A DNA stretch of 64,000 nucleotides, taken from assembly GCF_900452865.1 (NCBI RefSeq), contig NZ_UGOZ01000001.1, positions 2,830,001 to 2,894,000 on the forward strand. The letters run 5' to 3'. Positions within the stretch are counted from its first letter, which is position 1; each line of letters begins with the position of its first letter. A program made the position numbers and the translations under genes. Source of the stretch: Legionella taurinensis. GTDB taxonomy: Bacteria > Pseudomonadota > Gammaproteobacteria > Legionellales > Legionellaceae. Below are positions 36,741 through 46,308 of this stretch, piece by piece. The notes below the pieces were generated by a model. It searched no databases and had not been told where the DNA came from. It saw nothing but the letters and a program-made list of their open reading frames with translations.

Positions 36741-39700
36741 CTAACCTGGGTTACTGAAATAAAAACTGTTTTTACCCTCGCTTTTAACCTTGTACAACGC
36801 GGCATCGGCCTTCTGTAATAAGGCCTCGGCTGTTTTGGCGGCAAAAGGATACACGGCAATGCCAATACTCACCGACACATTCACCTCAATACCGTCAATC
36901 ACCAGGGGGTGAGGAATGGATTCGATCAACCGCTTTGCCAGCAACGAGAGAGCAGAATAGGAGCTGAAATCGGTGACAATCAGCAAAAACTCATCTCCGG
37001 CCAAACGGGCCAAATAATCGTGGCCGCGAATCGATTGTTTAAAGCATTGACTGACCTCCACCAGCAATTGATCGCCCAGGTGATGACCGTAGGTGTCGTT
37101 CACCTCTTTAAAATCGTCAAGGTCAAGAAACATAAGGCCAACCTCGCTTTTGTTGCGCATGGCGCGGCTGATGGCTAACTCGAGCATCTCCATGCAGGCA
37201 CGGCGATTGGGCAATTTGGTCAGTTCATCATGCAGGGCTAGATGCTGAAGCTGGGAATAGGCCATTTTGCGTTCTACCGCAAGACTCATCTGTGAGGCCA
37301 GCAGGTCAATCATGTCCAAATCTTCAATGGGTGCGGTATGGCTTTCGTCACTTAAAAACTCAAACACCGCATAAATCTCATCCGCGACGATAATGGGAAA
37401 AGCCAATGCCCCGCTGAATTTAAAATGGGTGCAGTGCGCCTGTTCCAGTGAAAAGGGATTGGCGCTGGAGGAGGACAGCCATACCGCTTTTCGCTCCTGA
37501 AAGACCTGCCCCACAATGCCTTCCTTTTTACTGAGCTCAAGGCTTTTCAGTGAGGCGCTACAGGCTGCCTCTCCTTTCATCGTTTGGTGCCAGACCGATT
37601 CGACATGCGGACTGTCCTCATTGACATAATACACCAGGCCTACCGCAAACCGGATCGCCTGACTGATTGTTGCGGCACAGAATTTAAAGGCATCCTGAAT
37701 GGTGTCGGTGACCAGTATTGTGCGGGTGGTCTTGTAAATGAGGTCGAGTTCAAGGTTTTTAAGCGATAATTTCTCCTGGGTAAATTTCAATGTCGTAATA
37801 TCAATGTGGGTACCAACCACACGGCGTATTCGGCCATCAGGATCGACAATGCCCTGTCCGCGGCAGAGAATCCACACCGGTTTGCCGTTACGATGGCGAT
37901 AACGCACCTCCTGATGAAGGGGGTATTTGCCTTTGGACAGGATGTGTTTTTTAAGATTGCTCTCAAGCAATTTAAAGTCGTCAGGGAATGCGTTGTCGCG
38001 GAAAAAATCCAGGGTCGGCGTGTAATGATCCCGCTCGTAGCCTAAGGAGCGCAATAATTTACTGGATAAAATACACTCTTTGGTTTCAAGATTAATATCC
38101 CACCAGCCATCCGTGGTTTCATCAAGGATAAGATCATAAATGGCCTTGTTTTCCCGAAATAGATTTTCACTGTATTTTTTTGAGGCCAGCTCTTCCTGCA
38201 GGGCTTTGATATTGGAGATATCACGAAAACTGAACAGATAACCGATGGTCTGATTATCCGCCCCGATGAATGGACTGACCTTAAGCATCATCCGGCTGGT
38301 GGAATCAAATTGATTCATCAAATCGAGTTCAAGGTTATTAATCACGCCAGTGGCGGCAATCCGGTTCATGATGTTTTTTTCAAGCATGGTGTTTTTGATA
38401 TTCAACACATCAAAAACGGATTGCCCTAACAGACTTTTTTTACGGACAATACCCAGAGTACGCATAAACGTCTGATTGCATTCCATCACCCGGCAGGTGC
38501 GATCCACAAAGAGGTAGAGATCAGGCGAATTGTCATAAATCCGTTGATACCTGGACTCCACCTCCAGCAAACGACGGCTCTTATCAGTAATCGACGTTTT
38601 TAACTGGGTGTTGTCCATGGCCACTTTATTGCGCAATAAATTAACCAAAGCCAACAAGGCTGTAATGGCTAACCCAAGCAAAATAGTAACAATCGGCAAC
38701 CAGGGTCTGTTTTCTGCCACGTAACGGGGCGAAGGCCAGAGTTTAAAAACCAATGGTTCTGTCAAAAAATCCAGTTGCAGCAGCTCGCTGTATGCCCAAC
38801 GATGGATAAAGGCCGGGCTTCCCTCATTGATCTGGGTGAAGAGCGTGATGGGGCCATAATGAACCTCCACACCGGTTAGTTCGGAATCAGCCCGCTTCAC
38901 CGCCCCCGACACAATGCGCTGCAGATTATAAAACATCCACCCCGGGCGGCCTTGATTATGCGCAAAACATAAATAGGGCACGCCACCGCTCGCTGCGTGT
39001 TCAACGACCGTGACGGTCATCCCCTGTGTTTTTAATCCTTGCTGACAAAGGCTGATTAAACGCAGTAAATGCGATTTTTGCAGATCATCCATTGGGCCGT
39101 GCTGAGACAGGGCTTCCTTACCCCAGGCAATGGCTGCGAGCGTAGGCATGTCTTTCAAATAATTCCCCGCATCCTCACTGATGGCCTCATCGTTGAACGC
39201 ATGATGGTTCAAACGGGAAAAAAAACGGCGGGTAGCCCAAAAGCTGTCATGCAGGTTGACCTCAATCTCCTTAGCAATCAGTCGCGTATCGGCTGCAATT
39301 TTTCGCCGCAATTGTTCTGCCGCATCGTTTAAAAAATTCTGCCAGAGTAAAATAAAAAACAGGAACCCGGTCACCAGAATGGTCATGGTCTGAACCATGC
39401 TGTGTTTTGAATAAAATTTAAAGTGGCGGTAATAAAAGAGGATGGAGAGTGACAGGCTGAGCAACATAAAACAAAAGGCAGACTGGGCTCCCATGCCGGG
39501 GTAACCTGCCCAGTTGTAAATGAGTTGGATATCCAGAAAATAACCAAACAGCGCGGCCAGACCGAGACACAACACCAGAGCGACCAGCACCAATTGCAGC
39601 AGTTTGGTCCATGTTTTTTTAAATAAACAGTACAGAAGAATAGCCGCATTGAGCAAAACAATGCAAAAGGCGGTATTAGGTCCCATACGAATGGGATACC

Positions 39701-40040
39701 CCTTGTCAATGGTGGTTTGTGGGATGAGCAGCCAATAATCAAGACCCAGATCCCAACCGCTTGCGTACTCTAACAGGGTAAAAAGACCGATAAGACCCGA
39801 CAACAGACTTAAAAGCATCGCCAGGCGCTTTTTAAGCGCGAGTGCAAAAACAGCGGAAGACGTCAGGGTAATGCAAAGCGCGGTATTGAAGCGCATAACC
39901 AGAGAGCCTGCGCCAAGCGTCGCAAATTGCGGCGCACGCGTTATCCAGCCAACCATGATCACAACCCCGATCAAATAGGCCGCCGCTGCCAGCGCGTAGC
40001 AAAAATAATATCGCTTTGACCTTAATCCATTCGCCGTCAA
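36741..40040 (-). CDS. Multi-sensor membrane diguanylate cyclase
   Basis: A 1099-residue signalling protein. About eight N-terminal membrane helices (residues 12-225) are followed by a periplasmic sensor-like loop to about 440 and another helix near 460. Then come two PAS domains (about 500-615 and 640-755), a GAF domain (about 775-920) and a C-terminal GGDEF domain starting at ALHDELTKLPNRRA. The catalytic signature is AGDEF, an active variant, and an RxxD inhibition site (RGHD) lies exactly five residues before it. No EAL domain is present, so it should make cyclic di-GMP with product feedback. The start is TTG at 40040, chosen because AAGGA lies seven bases upstream and no ATG exists upstream in frame. 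Confidence 0.9.
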   Translation of the reverse strand: MTANGLRSKRYYFCYALAAAAYLIGVVIMVGWITRAPQFATLGAGSLVMRFNTALCITLTSSAVFALALKKRLAMLLSLLSGLIGLFTLLEYASGWDLGLDYWLLIPQTTIDKGYPIRMGPNTAFCIVLLNAAILLYCLFKKTWTKLLQLVLVALVLCLGLAALFGYFLDIQLIYNWAGYPGMGAQSAFCFMLLSLSLSILFYYRHFKFYSKHSMVQTMTILVTGFLFFILLWQNFLNDAAEQLRRKIAADTRLIAKEIEVNLHDSFWATRRFFSRLNHHAFNDEAISEDAGNYLKDMPTLAAIAWGKEALSQHGPMDDLQKSHLLRLISLCQQGLKTQGMTVTVVEHAASGGVPYLCFAHNQGRPGWMFYNLQRIVSGAVKRADSELTGVEVHYGPITLFTQINEGSPAFIHRWAYSELLQLDFLTEPLVFKLWPSPRYVAENRPWLPIVTILLGLAITALLALVNLLRNKVAMDNTQLKTSITDKSRRLLEVESRYQRIYDNSPDLYLFVDRTCRVMECNQTFMRTLGIVRKKSLLGQSVFDVLNIKNTMLEKNIMNRIAATGVINNLELDLMNQFDSTSRMMLKVSPFIGADNQTIGYLFSFRDISNIKALQEELASKKYSENLFRENKAIYDLILDETTDGWWDINLETKECILSSKLLRSLGYERDHYTPTLDFFRDNAFPDDFKLLESNLKKHILSKGKYPLHQEVRYRHRNGKPVWILCRGQGIVDPDGRIRRVVGTHIDITTLKFTQEKLSLKNLELDLIYKTTRTILVTDTIQDAFKFCAATISQAIRFAVGLVYYVNEDSPHVESVWHQTMKGEAACSASLKSLELSKKEGIVGQVFQERKAVWLSSSSANPFSLEQAHCTHFKFSGALAFPIIVADEIYAVFEFLSDESHTAPIEDLDMIDLLASQMSLAVERKMAYSQLQHLALHDELTKLPNRRACMEMLELAISRAMRNKSEVGLMFLDLDDFKEVNDTYGHHLGDQLLVEVSQCFKQSIRGHDYLARLAGDEFLLIVTDFSSYSALSLLAKRLIESIPHPLVIDGIEVNVSVSIGIAVYPFAAKTAEALLQKADAALYKVKSEGKNSFYFSNPG

Positions 40041-40235
40041 AACAGCATCCTTAAAGGAAATAATATCCGTCCGCTTCCAGGTAAGTATAGCCGCACAGAA
40101 AGCATTCAGGCCCTGTCCATATCATAGCAATAACAGTGCCAGCTATTATTTTATTCTCATCACAGCATTTGACAATTAGGGGCCCGAAGACTAACGTTTT
40201 AAGAACCAAGCCACTGTTTTTCAATAATTTAAACA

Positions 40236-40964
40236 ATGATTGATCTCTGTATCAACACACAACCTGATGATGAGAGCTGCGGCCCCACCAGTCTGCAGGC
40301 TATTTATCGCTATTATGGACTGGATATTCCGCTTGACCAGGTTATCCAGGGTGTGGAGCGTTCGCATTCCGGCGGCACGCTGGCGCCCATGCTCGGTAAA
40401 CACGCGCTCCTGCATGGGTTTGATACCATCATTTACATTAACAACCTCAATATTTTTGACCCCACCTGGTTTGAACAGGGTGAAGCAAAGACCACGCTTC
40501 TGCTGCAGAAATTAAATACCCAGATGCGTTACAAACGCACAGCAGGAGTCCTGCAGGCCAGCAAAGCCTACATGGAATACGTGTCCTTGGGGGGCATTTT
40601 ACGTTTCCGCACCCTGAGCGTTCAGCTTCTGAAGGATTACTTTAAGCAGGGCATCCCCATTTTGACGGGCTTAAGCGCCACGTACTTATACCGCAGCGCC
40701 AGAGAACGCTATACTAGTAAAGGTGAAGCTTATTACGATGATATTCGCGGGACACCCTGCGGGCATTTTGTTGTGCTCTGTGGTTATGATGCTAAAAAAA
40801 GGCTTATCGTAGTCGCCGATCCGCATCGTGAAAACCCGCTCTCACATGACAATTATTACAAAGTGAGCAGTCATCGTTTGATTAACGCCATCATGCTTGG
40901 TGTACTGACCTATGATGCCAATTTACTTATCATTCAACCAAAGAGCACCCAATGCAAACTATAA
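40236..40964 (+). CDS. C39/papain-like cysteine peptidase of an amidoligase operon
   Basis: A 242-residue protein with the hallmarks of a C39/papain-like cysteine peptidase: Q9 and C15 in QPDDESCGPTSLQAIYRYYG, H177 in GTPCGHFVVLCGYD and D195 in VVADPHRENP. The oxyanion glutamine and catalytic triad thus look complete. There is no signal peptide and no fused ABC transporter, so it probably acts in the cytosol. It overlaps the ATP-grasp gene by 13 bases. Peptidases of this kind are known as neighbours of RLAN/RimK-type ligases, sometimes fused to a GNAT domain that is missing here. The substrate is unknown. Confidence 0.8.
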   Translation: MIDLCINTQPDDESCGPTSLQAIYRYYGLDIPLDQVIQGVERSHSGGTLAPMLGKHALLHGFDTIIYINNLNIFDPTWFEQGEAKTTLLLQKLNTQMRYKRTAGVLQASKAYMEYVSLGGILRFRTLSVQLLKDYFKQGIPILTGLSATYLYRSARERYTSKGEAYYDDIRGTPCGHFVVLCGYDAKKRLIVVADPHRENPLSHDNYYKVSSHRLINAIMLGVLTYDANLLIIQPKSTQCKL

Positions 40965-42442
40965 TCGTTACGGATGACCCTGACAGTTGGCAATTTTTAA
41001 GCCCCTTAGCCGCCATCGTTCATGCGTCGGAATACCTTTCCAGCGAAAATTTTCTGCAAAACAATTCCCTGCGCGTCATTAACCTCTGCCAATCTTATCA
41101 GCATCAAACCATTGGCTATTATGTTTCCCTTCTGGCCCATGCCCGGGATCACAAAGCCATTCCGTCGGTGCACAGCATTCAAGACGTCATGAACACCAGT
41201 TTGTCCAAGCTGATTTCTCAGGAAGTGGATGAAGAAATACAGCACAGCCTGCAGGACATCAAAGGCACCGAATTTGTCTTTAGTCTGTATTTCGGTCAGA
41301 ACATGGCCAAATGCCATGCCGATCTGGCGAGAAAACTGCATGGGTTATTCCCGTTGCCGCTTATCCGTTTCACACTGGAAAAACGCAAGCAATGGCGGAT
41401 TAAAAACCTGCAGCCCTTGTCGTTAAGCGGCGTTCCGGCCCACCACCGCGATTTCATGCGCCAGGCAGCGGAAAGCTACCTGTCGAAAAAACGGTTCCAT
41501 CAATGGCGTAAAAAACAACGTTATCATGATTTGGCTATTTTGGTTGATCCCACCGAACCCAATGCCCCATCCAACAAAAAAGCATTGGATTTCTTTGCCA
41601 ATACCGGTGAAGACATGGGACTCAATGTTGATTTCATCGAAAAAAGCGACAGCAAATCCATTGCCGAATACGATGCGCTGTTCATACGTGCCACCACCTC
41701 CGTCAATCACTACACTTACCGAATGGCGCGCCGGGCTGCGCAGGAAAATATCGTGGTGATCGATGATCCGCAATCCATCATTAAATGCAGTAATAAAGTC
41801 TATCTTGCCGAACTAATGCGCAGCCATCAGATCCTGACACCCGAAACCACCTTCATCAGCAAATACGACAAGGAACTGCCGCCGATTGAATTCCCGTGTG
41901 TATTAAAACGCCCGGACAGTGCCTTCTCTCACGGAGTCATCAAACTCGATGACTTTAAATCCTTGCAAAAGTCGCTGAATCAATTTTTCAAAAGTTCGGA
42001 TCTGGTCCTGATTCAACGGTTTATTCCCACGGAATTCGACTGGCGTATCGGCGTGCTGGATAACAAACCGATTTTTGCCTGCCGCTATTTCATGGCCAGG
42101 GATCACTGGCAAATCTACAACTGGGATGCCCTGAGCGATAAATCGCAAGGCAATATCGATGTTCAGGGCAACTTTGCCATACAGGGTAATCATGAAACGA
42201 TTCCCATTACCGATGTCCCGGACGGGGTCATCAAAACAGCCCTGAAAACCACCCGACTCATTGGCGACGGGTTGTATGGCGTAGACATTAAAAGTCAGGG
42301 CGACAAACATTATGTGATTGAAGTCAATGACAACCCCAACATTGATTTTGGTATTGAAGATCAGATTCTTGGTGAAAACCTCTATCAACAAATCATGACC
42401 GTCTTTTTACAACGCATTCGCAGGAAGCATGGCTATGGGTAA
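40952..42442 (+). CDS. RimK-like ATP-grasp ligase with RLAN N-terminal domain
   Basis: A 496-residue protein. Residues 1-170 fit the RLAN domain that precedes certain RimK-like enzymes. Residues 270-490 are an ATP-grasp domain: FPCVLKRPDSAFSHGV (ATP-binding lysine), LIQRFIPTEFDWRIGVLDNKPIFACRYF, GDGLYGVDIK and the metal-binding VIEVNDNPNIDFGIED. RimK-type enzymes join an amino acid to a carboxylate through an acyl-phosphate. The gene overlaps the peptidase gene by 13 bases and the GCS2-like gene by 14 bases, so the products are made together. Neither the amino acid nor the acceptor can be inferred from the sequence. Confidence 0.88.
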   Translation: MQTIIVTDDPDSWQFLSPLAAIVHASEYLSSENFLQNNSLRVINLCQSYQHQTIGYYVSLLAHARDHKAIPSVHSIQDVMNTSLSKLISQEVDEEIQHSLQDIKGTEFVFSLYFGQNMAKCHADLARKLHGLFPLPLIRFTLEKRKQWRIKNLQPLSLSGVPAHHRDFMRQAAESYLSKKRFHQWRKKQRYHDLAILVDPTEPNAPSNKKALDFFANTGEDMGLNVDFIEKSDSKSIAEYDALFIRATTSVNHYTYRMARRAAQENIVVIDDPQSIIKCSNKVYLAELMRSHQILTPETTFISKYDKELPPIEFPCVLKRPDSAFSHGVIKLDDFKSLQKSLNQFFKSSDLVLIQRFIPTEFDWRIGVLDNKPIFACRYFMARDHWQIYNWDALSDKSQGNIDVQGNFAIQGNHETIPITDVPDGVIKTALKTTRLIGDGLYGVDIKSQGDKHYVIEVNDNPNIDFGIEDQILGENLYQQIMTVFLQRIRRKHGYG

Positions 42443-43661
42443 TTACTCGCTTTTTTCTGTCATAGGACTTGAAATCGAATACATGCTGGTTGATAAAGCC
42501 ACATTAAACGTGCGTCCGCAAAGCGATACCATCCTTCAAGCCTTAAGCCACGGCGAACTCACCAACGAAGTGGCCCTGGGGGACATTGCCGTCAGCAATG
42601 AACTGGTGATGCATGTGCTTGAATTAAAAAACAATGGCCCGGCGCCTGTCTCACCGACCATTGTCACGCAGTTTAGGGAGGCAATTCAACGCGTGCAGCC
42701 GCTTCTTGAGGAACAGCAACTCCTGCTGCTGCCTACTGGCGCGCACCCCTGGATGGATCCTGCCTTAGAAACCCAACGCTGGCCGCACGGCAATCGCCAA
42801 ATCTATCAGCAATACGATCAGATTTTTAACTGCCATGGCCATGGCTGGGCGAATCTGCAAAGCATGCATGTCAATCTGCCTTTTGCCAATGACGAGGAAT
42901 TCAACCTGCTGCATAACAGCATCCGCCTGGTATTGCCTCTCCTGCCCGCCTTAGCCGCAAGCACCCCTTTCCTGGATGGCAAGCGCACCGGCATGCAGGA
43001 CAGCCGCCTTTATTTTTATGATAAAAACCAGCAACGAATACCCGAAATTACCGGGCTGGTGGTGCCTGAATTTGTCCAATCCGAAGCGCAGTACCACCGT
43101 GACATTCTGACACCGATGTATGAGGCGATACGGCCCTATGATCCCAAAGGCATTCTCCAGCACGAATGGCTGAACTCCCGCGGCGCCATTGCCAAATTTG
43201 AGTATGGCGCCATTGAAATCCGCTTGATTGATTCCCAGGAATGCGTGCAGGCGGATTATGCGATTGCCAGTGCCATTGTAGCTATCCTGAAACATTGGGT
43301 GAACCATTCCCATTACTTTCTGGATAATCCCTGCGACACAGGAACTCTGGCGGCACTTTATCAGCAAAGCCTGCAGGACGGCCTGGATACGCCGATAGAA
43401 AGCCGCGAATTGAGCCGGCAATGGCAATTAGCGCGAGGGGTTAAAACCTGCCGCGATGTCTGGGCAGCATTGATTGAACAGGTCAGCGCCGAGCTCGATT
43501 ACTCGTGCCAGACGGTTTTGGAAACGATACTCAGTCAGGGGAATCTCAGCCAGCGGATGGTACGCGCCTGCGGTAATGACATCAGCCATCACACCTTAAA
43601 GCGCTTATACCGCCAACTGGGAGATTGTTTATTAACTAACCAACAACTGCACGCACTATGA
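42429..43661 (+). CDS. Glutamate--cysteine ligase-like (GCS2) amidoligase
   Basis: A 410-residue member of the GCS2 carboxylate-amine ligase family, related to glutamine synthetase-fold enzymes. The first strand with metal-binding acidic residues is FSVIGLEIEYMLVD. HGHGWANLQSMHVNLPF and KFEYGAIEIRLIDSQECVQADYAIA are further family blocks around the ATP and substrate sites. It probably makes a gamma-glutamyl or other amide bond, but a true glutathione-pathway role is not implied. It overlaps the ATP-grasp gene by 14 bases and the hydrolase gene by 4 bases. Confidence 0.86.
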   Translation: MAMGNYSLFSVIGLEIEYMLVDKATLNVRPQSDTILQALSHGELTNEVALGDIAVSNELVMHVLELKNNGPAPVSPTIVTQFREAIQRVQPLLEEQQLLLLPTGAHPWMDPALETQRWPHGNRQIYQQYDQIFNCHGHGWANLQSMHVNLPFANDEEFNLLHNSIRLVLPLLPALAASTPFLDGKRTGMQDSRLYFYDKNQQRIPEITGLVVPEFVQSEAQYHRDILTPMYEAIRPYDPKGILQHEWLNSRGAIAKFEYGAIEIRLIDSQECVQADYAIASAIVAILKHWVNHSHYFLDNPCDTGTLAALYQQSLQDGLDTPIESRELSRQWQLARGVKTCRDVWAALIEQVSAELDYSCQTVLETILSQGNLSQRMVRACGNDISHHTLKRLYRQLGDCLLTNQQLHAL

Positions 43662-44407
43662 AACCAATCGCCGTGGTTTTAAGTTGTGAACATGCCGTTA
43701 ACCATGTCCCTGAGGAGTACAGGCCGCATTTTATGGCGCATGAGCATTTGCTCAACTCGCACAGGGGCATGGATTTTGGCGCGGAAGCCATCGCCAGCTA
43801 CCTGCGCGACGCGCTGGCCTGCGAGCTCGTCTCAGCTAAAGCCACCCGCCTGTTGATCGATTGTAACCGCAGCCTGCACCATCGCCACTGCTTTTCTGAA
43901 ATCACCTACCCTTTGCCAATCAATGAAAAGGAAGCGATACGGCAACGATACTACCTGCCTTTTCGGCAGGATGTGGAGACGCGGATTCATAGCCATCTGC
44001 AAGCGGGCAAGCAGGTGTGGCATTTGTCGGTCCACAGTTTTACACCCATTCTTAATGAAATAACCCGCAATACTGAAATTGGTTTATTGTATGATCCCAA
44101 ACGGCTGCTTGAGAGAAACCTGGCAAGGCATTGGCAGCAACAGATTAAACACCTCGACCAAGGTCTGCGGGTCCGCCTGAATTACCCTTACCGTGGTGTC
44201 AGCGACGGTTTTGCCGCGTCCCTGCGTAAAAAATACCCGGCTGAGGATTATCTTGGTCTTGAAATCGAAAGCAATCAGGCCCTGGTGCATGAAAACCATG
44301 CTATTGCTCACCTGGCCTGTGTGTTGTCAACCAGCCTAAGAATCATGCTCGACAATTGGCAACCCATCAGTCATCAAACGCTCCCGCAAACTAGCCAGGG
44401 CGATTGA
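43658..44407 (+). CDS. N-formylglutamate amidohydrolase-like enzyme
   Basis: A 249-residue protein of the N-formylglutamate amidohydrolase family, a zinc-dependent hydrolase fold. Recognisable blocks are VVLSCEHAVNHVPEEY, HRGMDFGAEAIASYL, RLLIDCNRS, WHLSVHSFTPIL, NYPYRGVSDGFAASLRKKYP and LGLEIESNQALV. In histidine degradation this enzyme releases glutamate from formylglutamate, but no hut genes are nearby. Within this operon it more likely hydrolyses an amide made by one of the two ligases; that is inference. It is the last gene of the operon, and its 3' end overlaps the convergent gene at 44391-44768 by 17 bases. Confidence 0.86.
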   Translation: MKPIAVVLSCEHAVNHVPEEYRPHFMAHEHLLNSHRGMDFGAEAIASYLRDALACELVSAKATRLLIDCNRSLHHRHCFSEITYPLPINEKEAIRQRYYLPFRQDVETRIHSHLQAGKQVWHLSVHSFTPILNEITRNTEIGLLYDPKRLLERNLARHWQQQIKHLDQGLRVRLNYPYRGVSDGFAASLRKKYPAEDYLGLEIESNQALVHENHAIAHLACVLSTSLRIMLDNWQPISHQTLPQTSQGD

Positions 44408-44768
44408 GCTGTTTTAAGTGGCAAAGCACGGGACCATTGTCCAGTTGCAGGGCATTACCGCCGGCATCCGTCATGAATTGCCCGGCATAACCTGACTTAC
44501 TGGCCGCCTTCTGAGCAGAAATAAACAGACGGGGACGGCTACTGTCCTCGCTATCAACCGCCATGAGCAGCAGGTTATTATTCCGCAGGCTGTAAAGACT
44601 GACCTTAACCGGGTAGACGAAGTCAATCGACGGTTTGTCCCCGTCCTTTTCAGGCAAGGCAAACACCACGCGCTCACTGACACCCTGAAGCACACATTCC
44701 ATGGTCTTTGTGCCCGCAAAAACCGGAAAAGCAACCAACACCAGAAGAACAGCCAATCTTTTTTTCAT
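44391..44768 (-). CDS. Small secreted protein
   Basis: A 125-residue protein with a signal peptide (residues 1-18, ending VFAG) and no recognised domain. Two cysteines (MECVLQG near residue 25 and VLCHLKQL near residue 117) could form one disulphide. It is predicted to be mainly beta strands. It lies 16 bases after the HerA-like gene on the same strand and overlaps the amidohydrolase gene from the other side. Confidence 0.7.
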   Translation of the reverse strand: MKKRLAVLLVLVAFPVFAGTKTMECVLQGVSERVVFALPEKDGDKPSIDFVYPVKVSLYSLRNNNLLLMAVDSEDSSRPRLFISAQKAASKSGYAGQFMTDAGGNALQLDNGPVLCHLKQLNRPG

Positions 44769-44784
44769 CGCCAGGTTCCTTACG

Positions 44785-46308
44785 TTATGGTTTTTTTCGT
44801 GAACGGCCTCGACTGGAGGGAAAGAATAAATTGAGTAATTTCCGCCAGATATCGCGAATCAACTGACGCAACAAGGTGTTTTTACTCAATTGCTCCAGCA
44901 CGGACGGCTCTTGCTTTTCCTGTGACGTGTCACTGCTTACGTCACCCGGAACAGAGGAGTCTGCCGTGCGGTTTGCAGTTCCCAGCTTTTCCGCCGCCGA
45001 GGGCGTGGATTGGCGTTGGCCATATTGGGTATACAGAGGCGATTGATGAATAATGGCCTGAACCTGCGCATCGGTAATTGTCCCCATGCGCGATTCAGGC
45101 GCCCGGATTAAACACTGGATTAACGGGGTGGGTTGGCCATTGCCATCCAGTGCGCTGACCAGGGCTTCCCCGATACCCAGGGACGTTAACAACTGTTCTG
45201 TCGCATAATGGGTTGACGGCGGAAAATTCTGCGCCACCAGTTTCATCGCCTGCCTGTCTTTGGCGGTAAATGCACGCAGGGCATGCTGGATTTTTAATCC
45301 CAGTTGACTCAATACCGCCTCAGGAATGTCATTCGGCGTCTGGGTACAAAAGACAAGGCCAATGCCTTTGGAGCGGATTAATTTGACCATGGTCTCCAGT
45401 AAATTTAACAAGGCTTTACTGGCGTGATTAAAAATAAGATGGGCTTCGTCAATAAAAAGCACCAGTTTAGGCTTGAGCGGATCACCAAGCTCAGGGGATT
45501 GACGGTACACATCCGACAGCAATTTAATCATGAAGGTTGAAAACAACAAGGGTTTATCCTGCATGTCCATTAAACGCAGGATGGACACAATCCCAAGCCC
45601 CTCGGCCGTTGTGCGGAACAGATCCGTGACCTTAAAGGCCGGCTCGCCAAAAAAATCGCCGCCGCCCTGCGCTTCCAATTCGATGATTTTGCGCATGATC
45701 GAGCCGACGGAGGCAGACGACACGCTGCCATAACGCGACTCCACGTCAATGTTTCCTTCATCTGACTGGATGTATTGCAGGATGGCTTTAAAATCATTTA
45801 AATCATTCAGCGGTAATTGACGGTCTTTGGCGTATTCAAAAAGAATGGTGACCACGCCCGTCTGCGTCTCATTCACATCCAGCATGCGCGAGAAAAGCAA
45901 CGCGCCAAAATCACTGACTTTACCGCGAACCGGCACACCTTGCACCCCGCGGTCTAAGGTTAACAGCTCCACCGGAAAACCCCGCGGGACAAATTCAAGG
46001 TTTAGGGAATGGCTGCGTTTTTTTAAGAAGTCATTGGACTCCCCAGGCACGGCCAGGCCGGACACATCGCCCTTGATGTCCATGACAAGGCTGGGTACGC
46101 CGGCTAACGATAACTGCTCACAAAGCACCTGAATGGTTTTGGTTTTACCGCTACCGGTGGCACCGGCGATAAGGCCATGGCGATTGAGTGATTTCAACAC
46201 CAGGTTTACCGGCGCATCCTGAAGGATCGTTCCATCCAGCATAATCCCGCCCAGTTGAAGGGCAGGCAGTTCGCCGGCCTGATAGGGCACACGCAAATCA
46301 TCGTACAT
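44785..46308 (-). CDS. HerA-like (DUF853) ATPase
   Basis: A 507-residue P-loop ATPase of the HerA/FtsK superfamily, DUF853 branch. Walker A is GATGSGKTKTIQ near residue 51, Walker B is LVLFIDEAHLIF near residue 285, and the following FCQT-like segment (IGLVFCTQTPNDIPEAVLSQLGLKIQHALRA) contains sensor and arginine-finger regions. The C-terminal 90 residues are polar and low in complexity. Such proteins are common, but their cellular role is poorly known. No NurA or SIR2 partner gene is adjacent, so a defence role is not supported. It starts with ATG at 46308, about 80 bases after fur. Confidence 0.9.
   Translation of the reverse strand: MYDDLRVPYQAGELPALQLGGIMLDGTILQDAPVNLVLKSLNRHGLIAGATGSGKTKTIQVLCEQLSLAGVPSLVMDIKGDVSGLAVPGESNDFLKKRSHSLNLEFVPRGFPVELLTLDRGVQGVPVRGKVSDFGALLFSRMLDVNETQTGVVTILFEYAKDRQLPLNDLNDFKAILQYIQSDEGNIDVESRYGSVSSASVGSIMRKIIELEAQGGGDFFGEPAFKVTDLFRTTAEGLGIVSILRLMDMQDKPLLFSTFMIKLLSDVYRQSPELGDPLKPKLVLFIDEAHLIFNHASKALLNLLETMVKLIRSKGIGLVFCTQTPNDIPEAVLSQLGLKIQHALRAFTAKDRQAMKLVAQNFPPSTHYATEQLLTSLGIGEALVSALDGNGQPTPLIQCLIRAPESRMGTITDAQVQAIIHQSPLYTQYGQRQSTPSAAEKLGTANRTADSSVPGDVSSDTSQEKQEPSVLEQLSKNTLLRQLIRDIWRKLLNLFFPSSRGRSRKKP

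What the first reader, a model, noticed from the sequence alone, without database searches (positions are those of the whole stretch)
40236..44407. Four-gene ligase/hydrolase operon: C39-like peptidase, RLAN-RimK ATP-grasp, GCS2 ligase, N-formylglutamate amidohydrolase-like enzyme
The four genes overlap by 13, 14 and 4 bases, so they are translated as a unit. Two members form amide bonds (ATP-grasp and GCS2) and two cleave amide or peptide bonds. Comparative genomics has linked RLAN/RimK-type ligases with papain-like peptidases and GCS2 proteins, but no product has been established to my knowledge. The cytosolic peptidase keeps Q9, C15, H177 and D195 and lacks any ABC transporter. I infer a pathway that builds and trims a small glutamate-containing peptide or tags a protein.
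Basis: partly seen in the sequence, partly recalled or inferred. Interest (0 to 1): 0.85.

Follow-up and report, generated by a model that had tools for sequence, protein, structure and literature searches.

The report
Conserved two-ligase, two-hydrolase peptide operon
Four overlapping Legionella genes encode two amide-bond-forming and two amide-cutting enzymes that stay together in the same order across many bacterial phyla, which points to an uncharacterised pathway that builds and trims a small glutamate-containing peptide or tag.

Summary
In detail: four genes at 40236-44407 overlap by 13, 14 and 4 bases and match Peptidase_C39_2, RLAN+RimK, GCS2 and FGase. It is a widespread module. Of 80 named loci fetched with GCS2 alone, 79 have RLAN-RimK upstream on the same strand and 52 hold all four genes in this order, in ten phyla. 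In an even draw of Bacteroidota, 23 of 23 further loci keep RLAN-GCS2. Catalytic residues are invariant in the rows aligned. The genome makes glutathione and carries canonical RimK elsewhere.

New here: RLAN-RimK enzymes split into two groups (unrooted, 100/99) with the same core residues but different partners. One has a RimI-like GNAT beside RLAN in 60 of 61 loci and GCS2 in none; no GCS2 locus has a GNAT (0 of 80 and 0 of 23). GCS2 seems to stand in for an acetyltransferase. The peptidase fold is as close to glutathione-cleaving phytochelatin synthase as to C39.

Best reading: a cytosolic pathway for a gamma-glutamyl-capped peptide. The product is not established. RLAN's link to GCS2 and papain-like peptidases is, as I recall, in print; that paper was not held.

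The parts
40236..40964 (+). C39_2-type papain-like cysteine peptidase, 242 aa; Q9/C15/H177/D195 set; predicted fold closest to C39 leader peptidases and to the phytochelatin synthase Alr0975 (tie)
40952..42442 (+). RLAN-RimK ATP-grasp ligase, 496 aa: RLAN domain residues 26-171, complete ATP-grasp ligase about 192-491 (best fold matches ArgX/LysX and RimK)
42429..43661 (+). GCS2-family carboxylate-amine ligase, 410 aa, GhExE signature G13-E15-E17; below the YbdK-family cut-off of NCBIfam
43658..44407 (+). FGase (PF05013) amidohydrolase, 249 aa; nearest solved relative Atu2144 (2odf); invariant E11, H12, D39, H122, H126, E202, E204
40041..40235 (.). 195-base gap to the divergent GGDEF gene, the likely place of an operon promoter; promoter-like matches over 40000-44800 are 9 against 6.0 (sd 2.5) in shuffles, so none is evidence

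Best explanation
The four genes form a self-contained cytosolic pathway that builds, caps and trims a non-ribosomal, glutamate-containing peptide. Proposed steps: (1) RLAN-RimK uses ATP to join an amino acid, most likely glutamate, to a free carboxylate of a small acceptor (fold and residues shown, reaction inferred). (2) GCS2 uses ATP to acylate an amine with a gamma-glutamyl group, the chemical equivalent of the acetyl cap that a RimI-like GNAT would give in the sister RLAN systems (partner exchange shown, reaction inferred). (3) The papain-like C39 enzyme cleaves or transfers the peptide through a Cys acyl-enzyme, as the glutathione-cleaving phytochelatin synthase does (fold and catalytic set shown, activity inferred). 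(4) The FGase-family enzyme, seen here with the GCS2 version only, hydrolyses an acyl-glutamate bond to recycle or correct the product (co-occurrence shown, activity inferred).
Against: No product, substrate or activity is known. Strong constraint on C39 and RLAN would also fit a fixed protein substrate. ArgX/LysX and RimK, the best fold matches, act on protein C-termini. C39 is missing in 22 of 80 and FGA in 6 of 80 loci (some are cut off by contig ends) and FGA in 8 of 23 Bacteroidota loci, so neither hydrolase is essential. One RLAN that falls on the cassette side of the tree (L130, no GCS2) has a weak, 102-aa GNAT frame beside it. A shared fold shows no function, and the C39/phytochelatin-synthase match is a tie; by sequence profile C39 is nearer.
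Confidence: 0.45

Rival explanations
1. A protein-modification system: RLAN-RimK adds glutamate(s) to the C-terminus of a host protein (as RimK on S6, or LysX/ArgX on LysW), GCS2 attaches a further group to the tag's gamma-carboxylate, and the peptidase and amidohydrolase erase it.
For: Best fold matches of the ligase are enzymes that act on protein C-termini; GCS2 shares the GhExE signature with the Pup ligase PafA (passages of PMC2588565); dN/dS of C39 and RLAN is 0.009 against L. erythra, where Fur gives 0.041, though against the nearer L123 C39 (0.025) is above Fur (0.012) and RLAN 0.009 below; the sister systems carry a GNAT whose best NCBIfam match is RimI, 76.8 bits, under its cut-off of 86.4.
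Against: No small acceptor or carrier protein family is shared beside the cassette across lineages; the genome has its own canonical RimK.
Confidence: 0.3
2. A second glutathione/phytochelatin-type pathway: GCS2 makes gamma-Glu-X, RLAN-RimK adds the third residue as GshB does, and the papain-like enzyme removes it or transfers gamma-Glu-X to another tripeptide.
Against: NCBIfam glutathione models fall far below cut-off for both ligases; the genome already makes glutathione; no PF05023 match; C39 leader peptidases fit equally well; GCS2 resembles solved GCS enzymes only weakly. RLAN keeps the same core residues in the GNAT systems, which have no GCS2.
Confidence: 0.15
3. A ribosomally made peptide (graspetide-like RiPP or Pup-like tag) is modified by the ligases and cut by C39.
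For: ATP-grasp ligases and C39 peptidases occur in RiPP loci (PMC8939145, passages).
Against: No small ORF family shared across lineages within 1.5 kb of the cassette (very short or diverged peptides could be missed); the peptidase has no ABC exporter domain.
Confidence: 0.05

Closest known systems
RLAN + GNAT/papain (DUF3335) systems of other Pseudomonadota (predicted only; Iyer et al. 2009 as recalled and as cited for GNAT-fused DUF3335 in PMC10318531)
   Same: RLAN-RimK with the same near-invariant residues; a papain-like peptidase, and the DUF3335 model built here picks up three cassette C39 proteins (1e-5 to 8e-5)
   Different: GNAT instead of GCS2; in 42 of 60 the GNAT frame is 300 aa or longer (fusion size); same strand as RLAN in 31 of 60; no FGase; a separate RLAN group
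RimK / LysX / ArgX ATP-grasp ligases
   Different: Extra RLAN domain; below NCBIfam cut-offs; canonical RimK is a separate gene
GCS2 / YbdK carboxylate-amine ligases
   Same: Pfam GCS2; GhExE signature; E263-x-R265-x-x-D268
   Different: 66.6 bits against a cut-off of 176.4 for the YbdK family; RLAN beside it in 102 of 103 loci
N-formylglutamate amidohydrolase (HutG) / Atu2144
   Same: Pfam FGase; 114.9 bits to 2odf with shared conserved residues
   Different: No NCBIfam match; found beside GCS2, not beside the RLAN-GNAT pair
Phytochelatin synthase Alr0975 (C83) and C39 leader peptidases
   Different: No PF05023 match; no ABC transporter domain; about 14-15% identity to Alr0975 and 18-26% to the C39 domains ranked beside it in the aligned part

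Membership tests
RLAN-RimK ATP-grasp family (PF14401 + PF08443) | RLAN domain fused to a RimK-type ATP-grasp, above Pfam cut-offs | tested here: met
   RLAN 157.5 bits (cut-off 25), RimK 32.5 (21); fold
RLAN-GNAT-papain system | GNAT acetyltransferase beside or fused to the papain-like peptidase | tested here: not met
   0 of 80 cassette loci and 0 of 23 Bacteroidota loci have a GNAT near RLAN; none beside the window's RLAN
Ribosomal S6 glutamate ligase RimK | NCBIfam RimK models above cut-off | tested here: not met
   rimK_fam 55.6 bits against 143.4; canonical RimK elsewhere in the genome, 440.9 bits
GCS2 family (PF04107) | Pfam match and GhExE signature | tested here: met
   94 bits (cut-off 21); G13, E15, E17 in 45 of 45
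YbdK / glutamate-cysteine ligase equivalogs | NCBIfam score above cut-off | tested here: not met
   TIGR02050 66.6 against 176.4; others lower
N-formylglutamate amidohydrolase family (PF05013) | Pfam match | tested here: met
   82.6 bits (cut-off 28.9)
N-formylglutamate amidohydrolase family (PF05013) | Hydrolysis of N-formylglutamate | not testable with these tools
   no assay
Phytochelatin synthase (PF05023, C83) | Pfam phytochelatin-synthase match | tested here: not met
   no PF05023 hit at E 0.1; not found by profile in the PDB at E 10
Phytochelatin synthase (PF05023, C83) | Papain-like fold with Cys-His-Asp set | tested here: met
C39 double-glycine leader peptidase of ABC exporters | Peptidase domain fused to an ABC exporter | tested here: not met
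   242 aa, peptidase domain only
Glutathione biosynthesis | GshA and GshB equivalogs | tested here: not met
   cassette ligases below cut-off; TIGR02049 GshA and TIGR01380 GshB lie elsewhere
Pup/graspetide-type system | Conserved small peptide gene beside the enzymes | tested here: inconclusive
   no small ORF family spans lineages within 1.5 kb; one encoded elsewhere was not sought

The most novel reading that the evidence does not exclude
RLAN-RimK ligases define one widespread, undescribed class of intracellular capped peptides, made in two chemical dialects: acetyl-capped where the partner is a GNAT, gamma-glutamyl-capped where the partner is GCS2. The second dialect is a parallel of glutathione/phytochelatin metabolism, with its own papain-like transpeptidase and its own FGase-family recycling enzyme, running beside glutathione in the same cell.
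Probability: 0.2. Interest if true: 0.85.

Novelty: new variant of a known kind. Interest (0 to 1): 0.62.

Why it matters
Operons of this type occur in ten phyla by the names of the records and C39 and RLAN are under very strong selection in Legionella, yet no product is known to me. A new intracellular peptide or tag shared by bacteria this distant would matter to physiology. The GNAT/GCS2 exchange gives a concrete, testable prediction (amine capping), and the minimal pair RLAN+GCS2 is small enough to reconstitute.

Tried and rejected
Glutathione synthesis: rejected, gshA and gshB lie elsewhere in the genome; the PF04262 type of GshA is absent but the TIGR02049 type is present. S6 modification: rejected, canonical RimK elsewhere. 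RiPP: no precursor found (531 small frames; two small families, each within one lineage). Legionella-specific oddity: rejected. A fifth constant gene: not found among the families listed or the neighbours scanned; M19, M42-like and radical-SAM neighbours occur in a few loci only. Flavobacteria without a cassette C39: in 10 genomes searched no full-length copy elsewhere (3 partial hits in frames of 700-737 aa; an eleventh genome was not held). RNA families: none at the gathering score in 39500-45000. Plasmids: one record, Legionella adelaidensis. A strong solo FGase (6.8e-71) in one gammaproteobacterium: no GCS2 hit in that genome, none listed for RLAN, and no such gene order in the ORFs around it (read by eye, not scanned by profile). 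The RLAN domain itself got no fold match because the ATP-grasp part filled the list; its fold is untested. In one search, 9 loci fell out of the first greedy gene call; replace it. The GNAT model was built from 26 proteins of 26 of the 61 loci it was then used on; in the other 35 loci it finds a GNAT in 34. Papers: listings (mostly off-topic); one search gave no paper. Only passages were seen of PMC8939145, PMC10318531, PMC2588565, PMC2922099, PMC4431377 and PMC12153261. Iyer et al. 2009 (Mol Biosyst 5:1636) is not held; what I say of it is recalled, as is the Pfam RLAN text on GNAT-papain, M20 and GCS2 neighbours.

Full report
Observation. The four ORFs lie at the stated coordinates on the + strand, with overlaps of 13, 14 and 4 bases. 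Pfam gives Peptidase_C39_2 (37.4 bits, cut-off 24), RLAN (157.5, 25) with RimK (32.5, 21), GCS2 (94, 21) and FGase (82.6, 28.9). NCBIfam finds no model above cut-off for any of the four. The nearest named record is Legionella erythra: 83.8% DNA identity over the region and 99% identity in RLAN.

Spread inside the family. RLAN occurs in 80 of 143 genomes of the order sample, with 87 matches in all. I fetched 39 of the 86 matches outside the window's genome. GCS2 and FGA are present in 32 of 39 and C39 in 27 of 39, besides the window. The other seven loci hold RLAN without GCS2; three of them have a GNAT frame beside it. Eight of the 39 are the same sequences as loci.

Spread outside. In an even draw of 398 Pseudomonadota genomes RLAN occurs in 72, but cassette-type GCS2 in only 1, the window's own (profile from Legionellaceae rows, E 1e-10). 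Of the 80, 52 read C39-RLAN-GCS2-FGA, 21 RLAN-GCS2-FGA, 6 C39-RLAN-GCS2 and 1 GCS2-FGA. All genes are on one strand and the median junction is -4 bases. Some absences are contig ends. No locus lacks both hydrolases (0 of 80). An even draw of 296 Bacteroidota gave 24 genomes with cassette GCS2; one of them is the genome of L213. I fetched the other 23, none of which is a near-copy of the 80. All 23 have RLAN upstream; 13 have all four genes, 7 lack FGA, 2 lack C39, and one has GCS2 and RLAN in several frames and no FGA. So RLAN+GCS2 is the near-obligate pair (102 of 103).

Active sites. I aligned part of each set: 48 of 54, 49 of 73, 44 of 69 and 32 of 62 of the length-filtered frames listed, plus the window. 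Invariant: Q9, C15, H177, D195 in 49 of 49 peptidases; K282, K319, D363, R365, D445, E457, N459 in 50 of 50 ligases; G13, E15, E17, E263, R265, D268 in 45 of 45 GCS2; E11, H12, D39, H122, H126, E202, E204 in 33 of 33 FGA. The GhExE signature is described for GCS2 and PafA in PMC2588565 (passages). Which FGA residues bind metal is inference.

Two RLAN groups. The RLAN tree has 147 rows (frames of 470 aa or more; the Legionellaceae cassettes were left out in favour of those). All 77 cassette enzymes and 7 solo copies of the family fall on one side, and all 61 others plus 2 solo copies on the other, SH-aLRT 100; the root is not known and the tree warns of long branches. A careful tree of 57 subsampled rows, with five long-branch rows kept out of the draw, gives 100/99. 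The 61 others were fetched from 74 matches outside the family. In them a RimI-like GNAT lies within 1.5 kb in 60 of 61, a DUF3335-type peptidase is detected in 41, and GCS2 and FGA in none. The GNAT model was built from 26 of these loci; in the other 35 it finds a GNAT in 34. No GNAT hit lies farther away in those loci; the GNAT is on RLAN's strand in 31 of 60, so the pair is often divergent rather than one operon. In the cassette loci GNAT is found in 0 of 80 and 0 of 23. The 80 were chosen by GCS2, so the informative part is the lack of GNAT. The RLAN-chosen set of the family (39 loci plus the window) gives the same picture: GCS2 in 33 of 40 and GNAT in 3 of 40, in different loci. One of the three, L130, has a cassette-side RLAN, no GCS2 and a weak 102-aa GNAT frame (7.8e-5): an exception to the rule by tree, though not by locus. 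Both groups keep the same 49 near-invariant residues, and only two positions differ consistently. I infer that RLAN-RimK does the same reaction in both and that GCS2 stands in for the GNAT. Both enzymes acylate an amine. The DUF3335 model also picks up three cassette C39 proteins, which supports kinship of the two peptidases.

Selection and co-evolution. Against L. erythra dN/dS is 0.009 for C39 and for RLAN, 0.102 for GCS2 and 0.058 for FGA; Fur in the same stretch gives 0.041. Against the nearer L123 it is 0.025 for C39, 0.009 for RLAN, 0.090 for GCS2, 0.085 for FGA and 0.012 for Fur. Pairwise distances of the four proteins correlate (rho 0.40-0.72; at most 1 of 500 permutations reaches the value); shared ancestry contributes to this.

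Redundancy. The genome has gshA (TIGR02049, 536.8 bits) overlapping gshB (399.6 bits), and a canonical rimK (440.9 bits) elsewhere. The cassette is therefore neither of these.

No peptide gene. Among 531 small frames within 1.5 kb of the 80 cassettes, no family is shared across lineages; very short or diverged peptides could be missed. Flanking families listed are mostly those of related genera and hold no fixed place.

Mechanism. Shown: the module, its residues, its folds and the partner exchange. Inferred: the reactions. I favour a small capped peptide over a protein tag because no acceptor gene travels with the cassette and because the flanks vary, but the best ligase matches act on protein C-termini and the constraint on C39 and RLAN is strong, so the tag rival keeps 0.3.

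Known or new. A JBC paper says that DUF3335 domains are often fused to GNATs and cites Iyer et al. 2009 for it (PMC10318531, passages). That 2009 paper is not held. From memory, it and the Pfam RLAN entry already link RLAN with papain-like peptidases, GNAT, M20 and GCS2. Searches that asked for the ligases together with N-formylglutamate amidohydrolase listed no paper that holds both, in an open-access library only. I therefore call it a new variant of a known, uncharacterised kind.

Noticed in passing
L129 6648-11469 (G023): Three RLAN-RimK genes in tandem in one genome of the family, with a fourth copy on another contig; no GCS2 or FGA beside them.
   Followed up: partly
window 40952-42442, residues about 400-411: The window's RLAN-RimK carries about 12 extra residues in a low-confidence loop that the other 22 rows of alignment A4 lack; three near relatives (L122, L123, L151) have the same protein length.
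   Followed up: no
L191 3891-5344: In Legionella norrlandica RLAN is present as two overlapping frames; in L290 (a Bacteroidota genome) GCS2 is in two pieces. Described only.
   Followed up: no
L291 1-9073: The Legionella adelaidensis '9-kb plasmid 27' holds three cassette genes plus fur, bamE and dapF, which looks like a chromosomal contig deposited as a plasmid.
   Followed up: no
L199: A MAG titled Klebsiella pneumoniae carries the cassette; the title is probably wrong.
   Followed up: no
window 36741-40040: A 1099-aa PAS-GAF-GGDEF protein (TTG start as called) is divergent to the operon across a 195-base gap.
   Followed up: no
L212 3112-4401, L201 7961-9025: An M19 dipeptidase and an M42-like peptidase lie next to some cassettes outside Legionellaceae; each occurs in few loci but hints at a peptide substrate.
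   Followed up: partly
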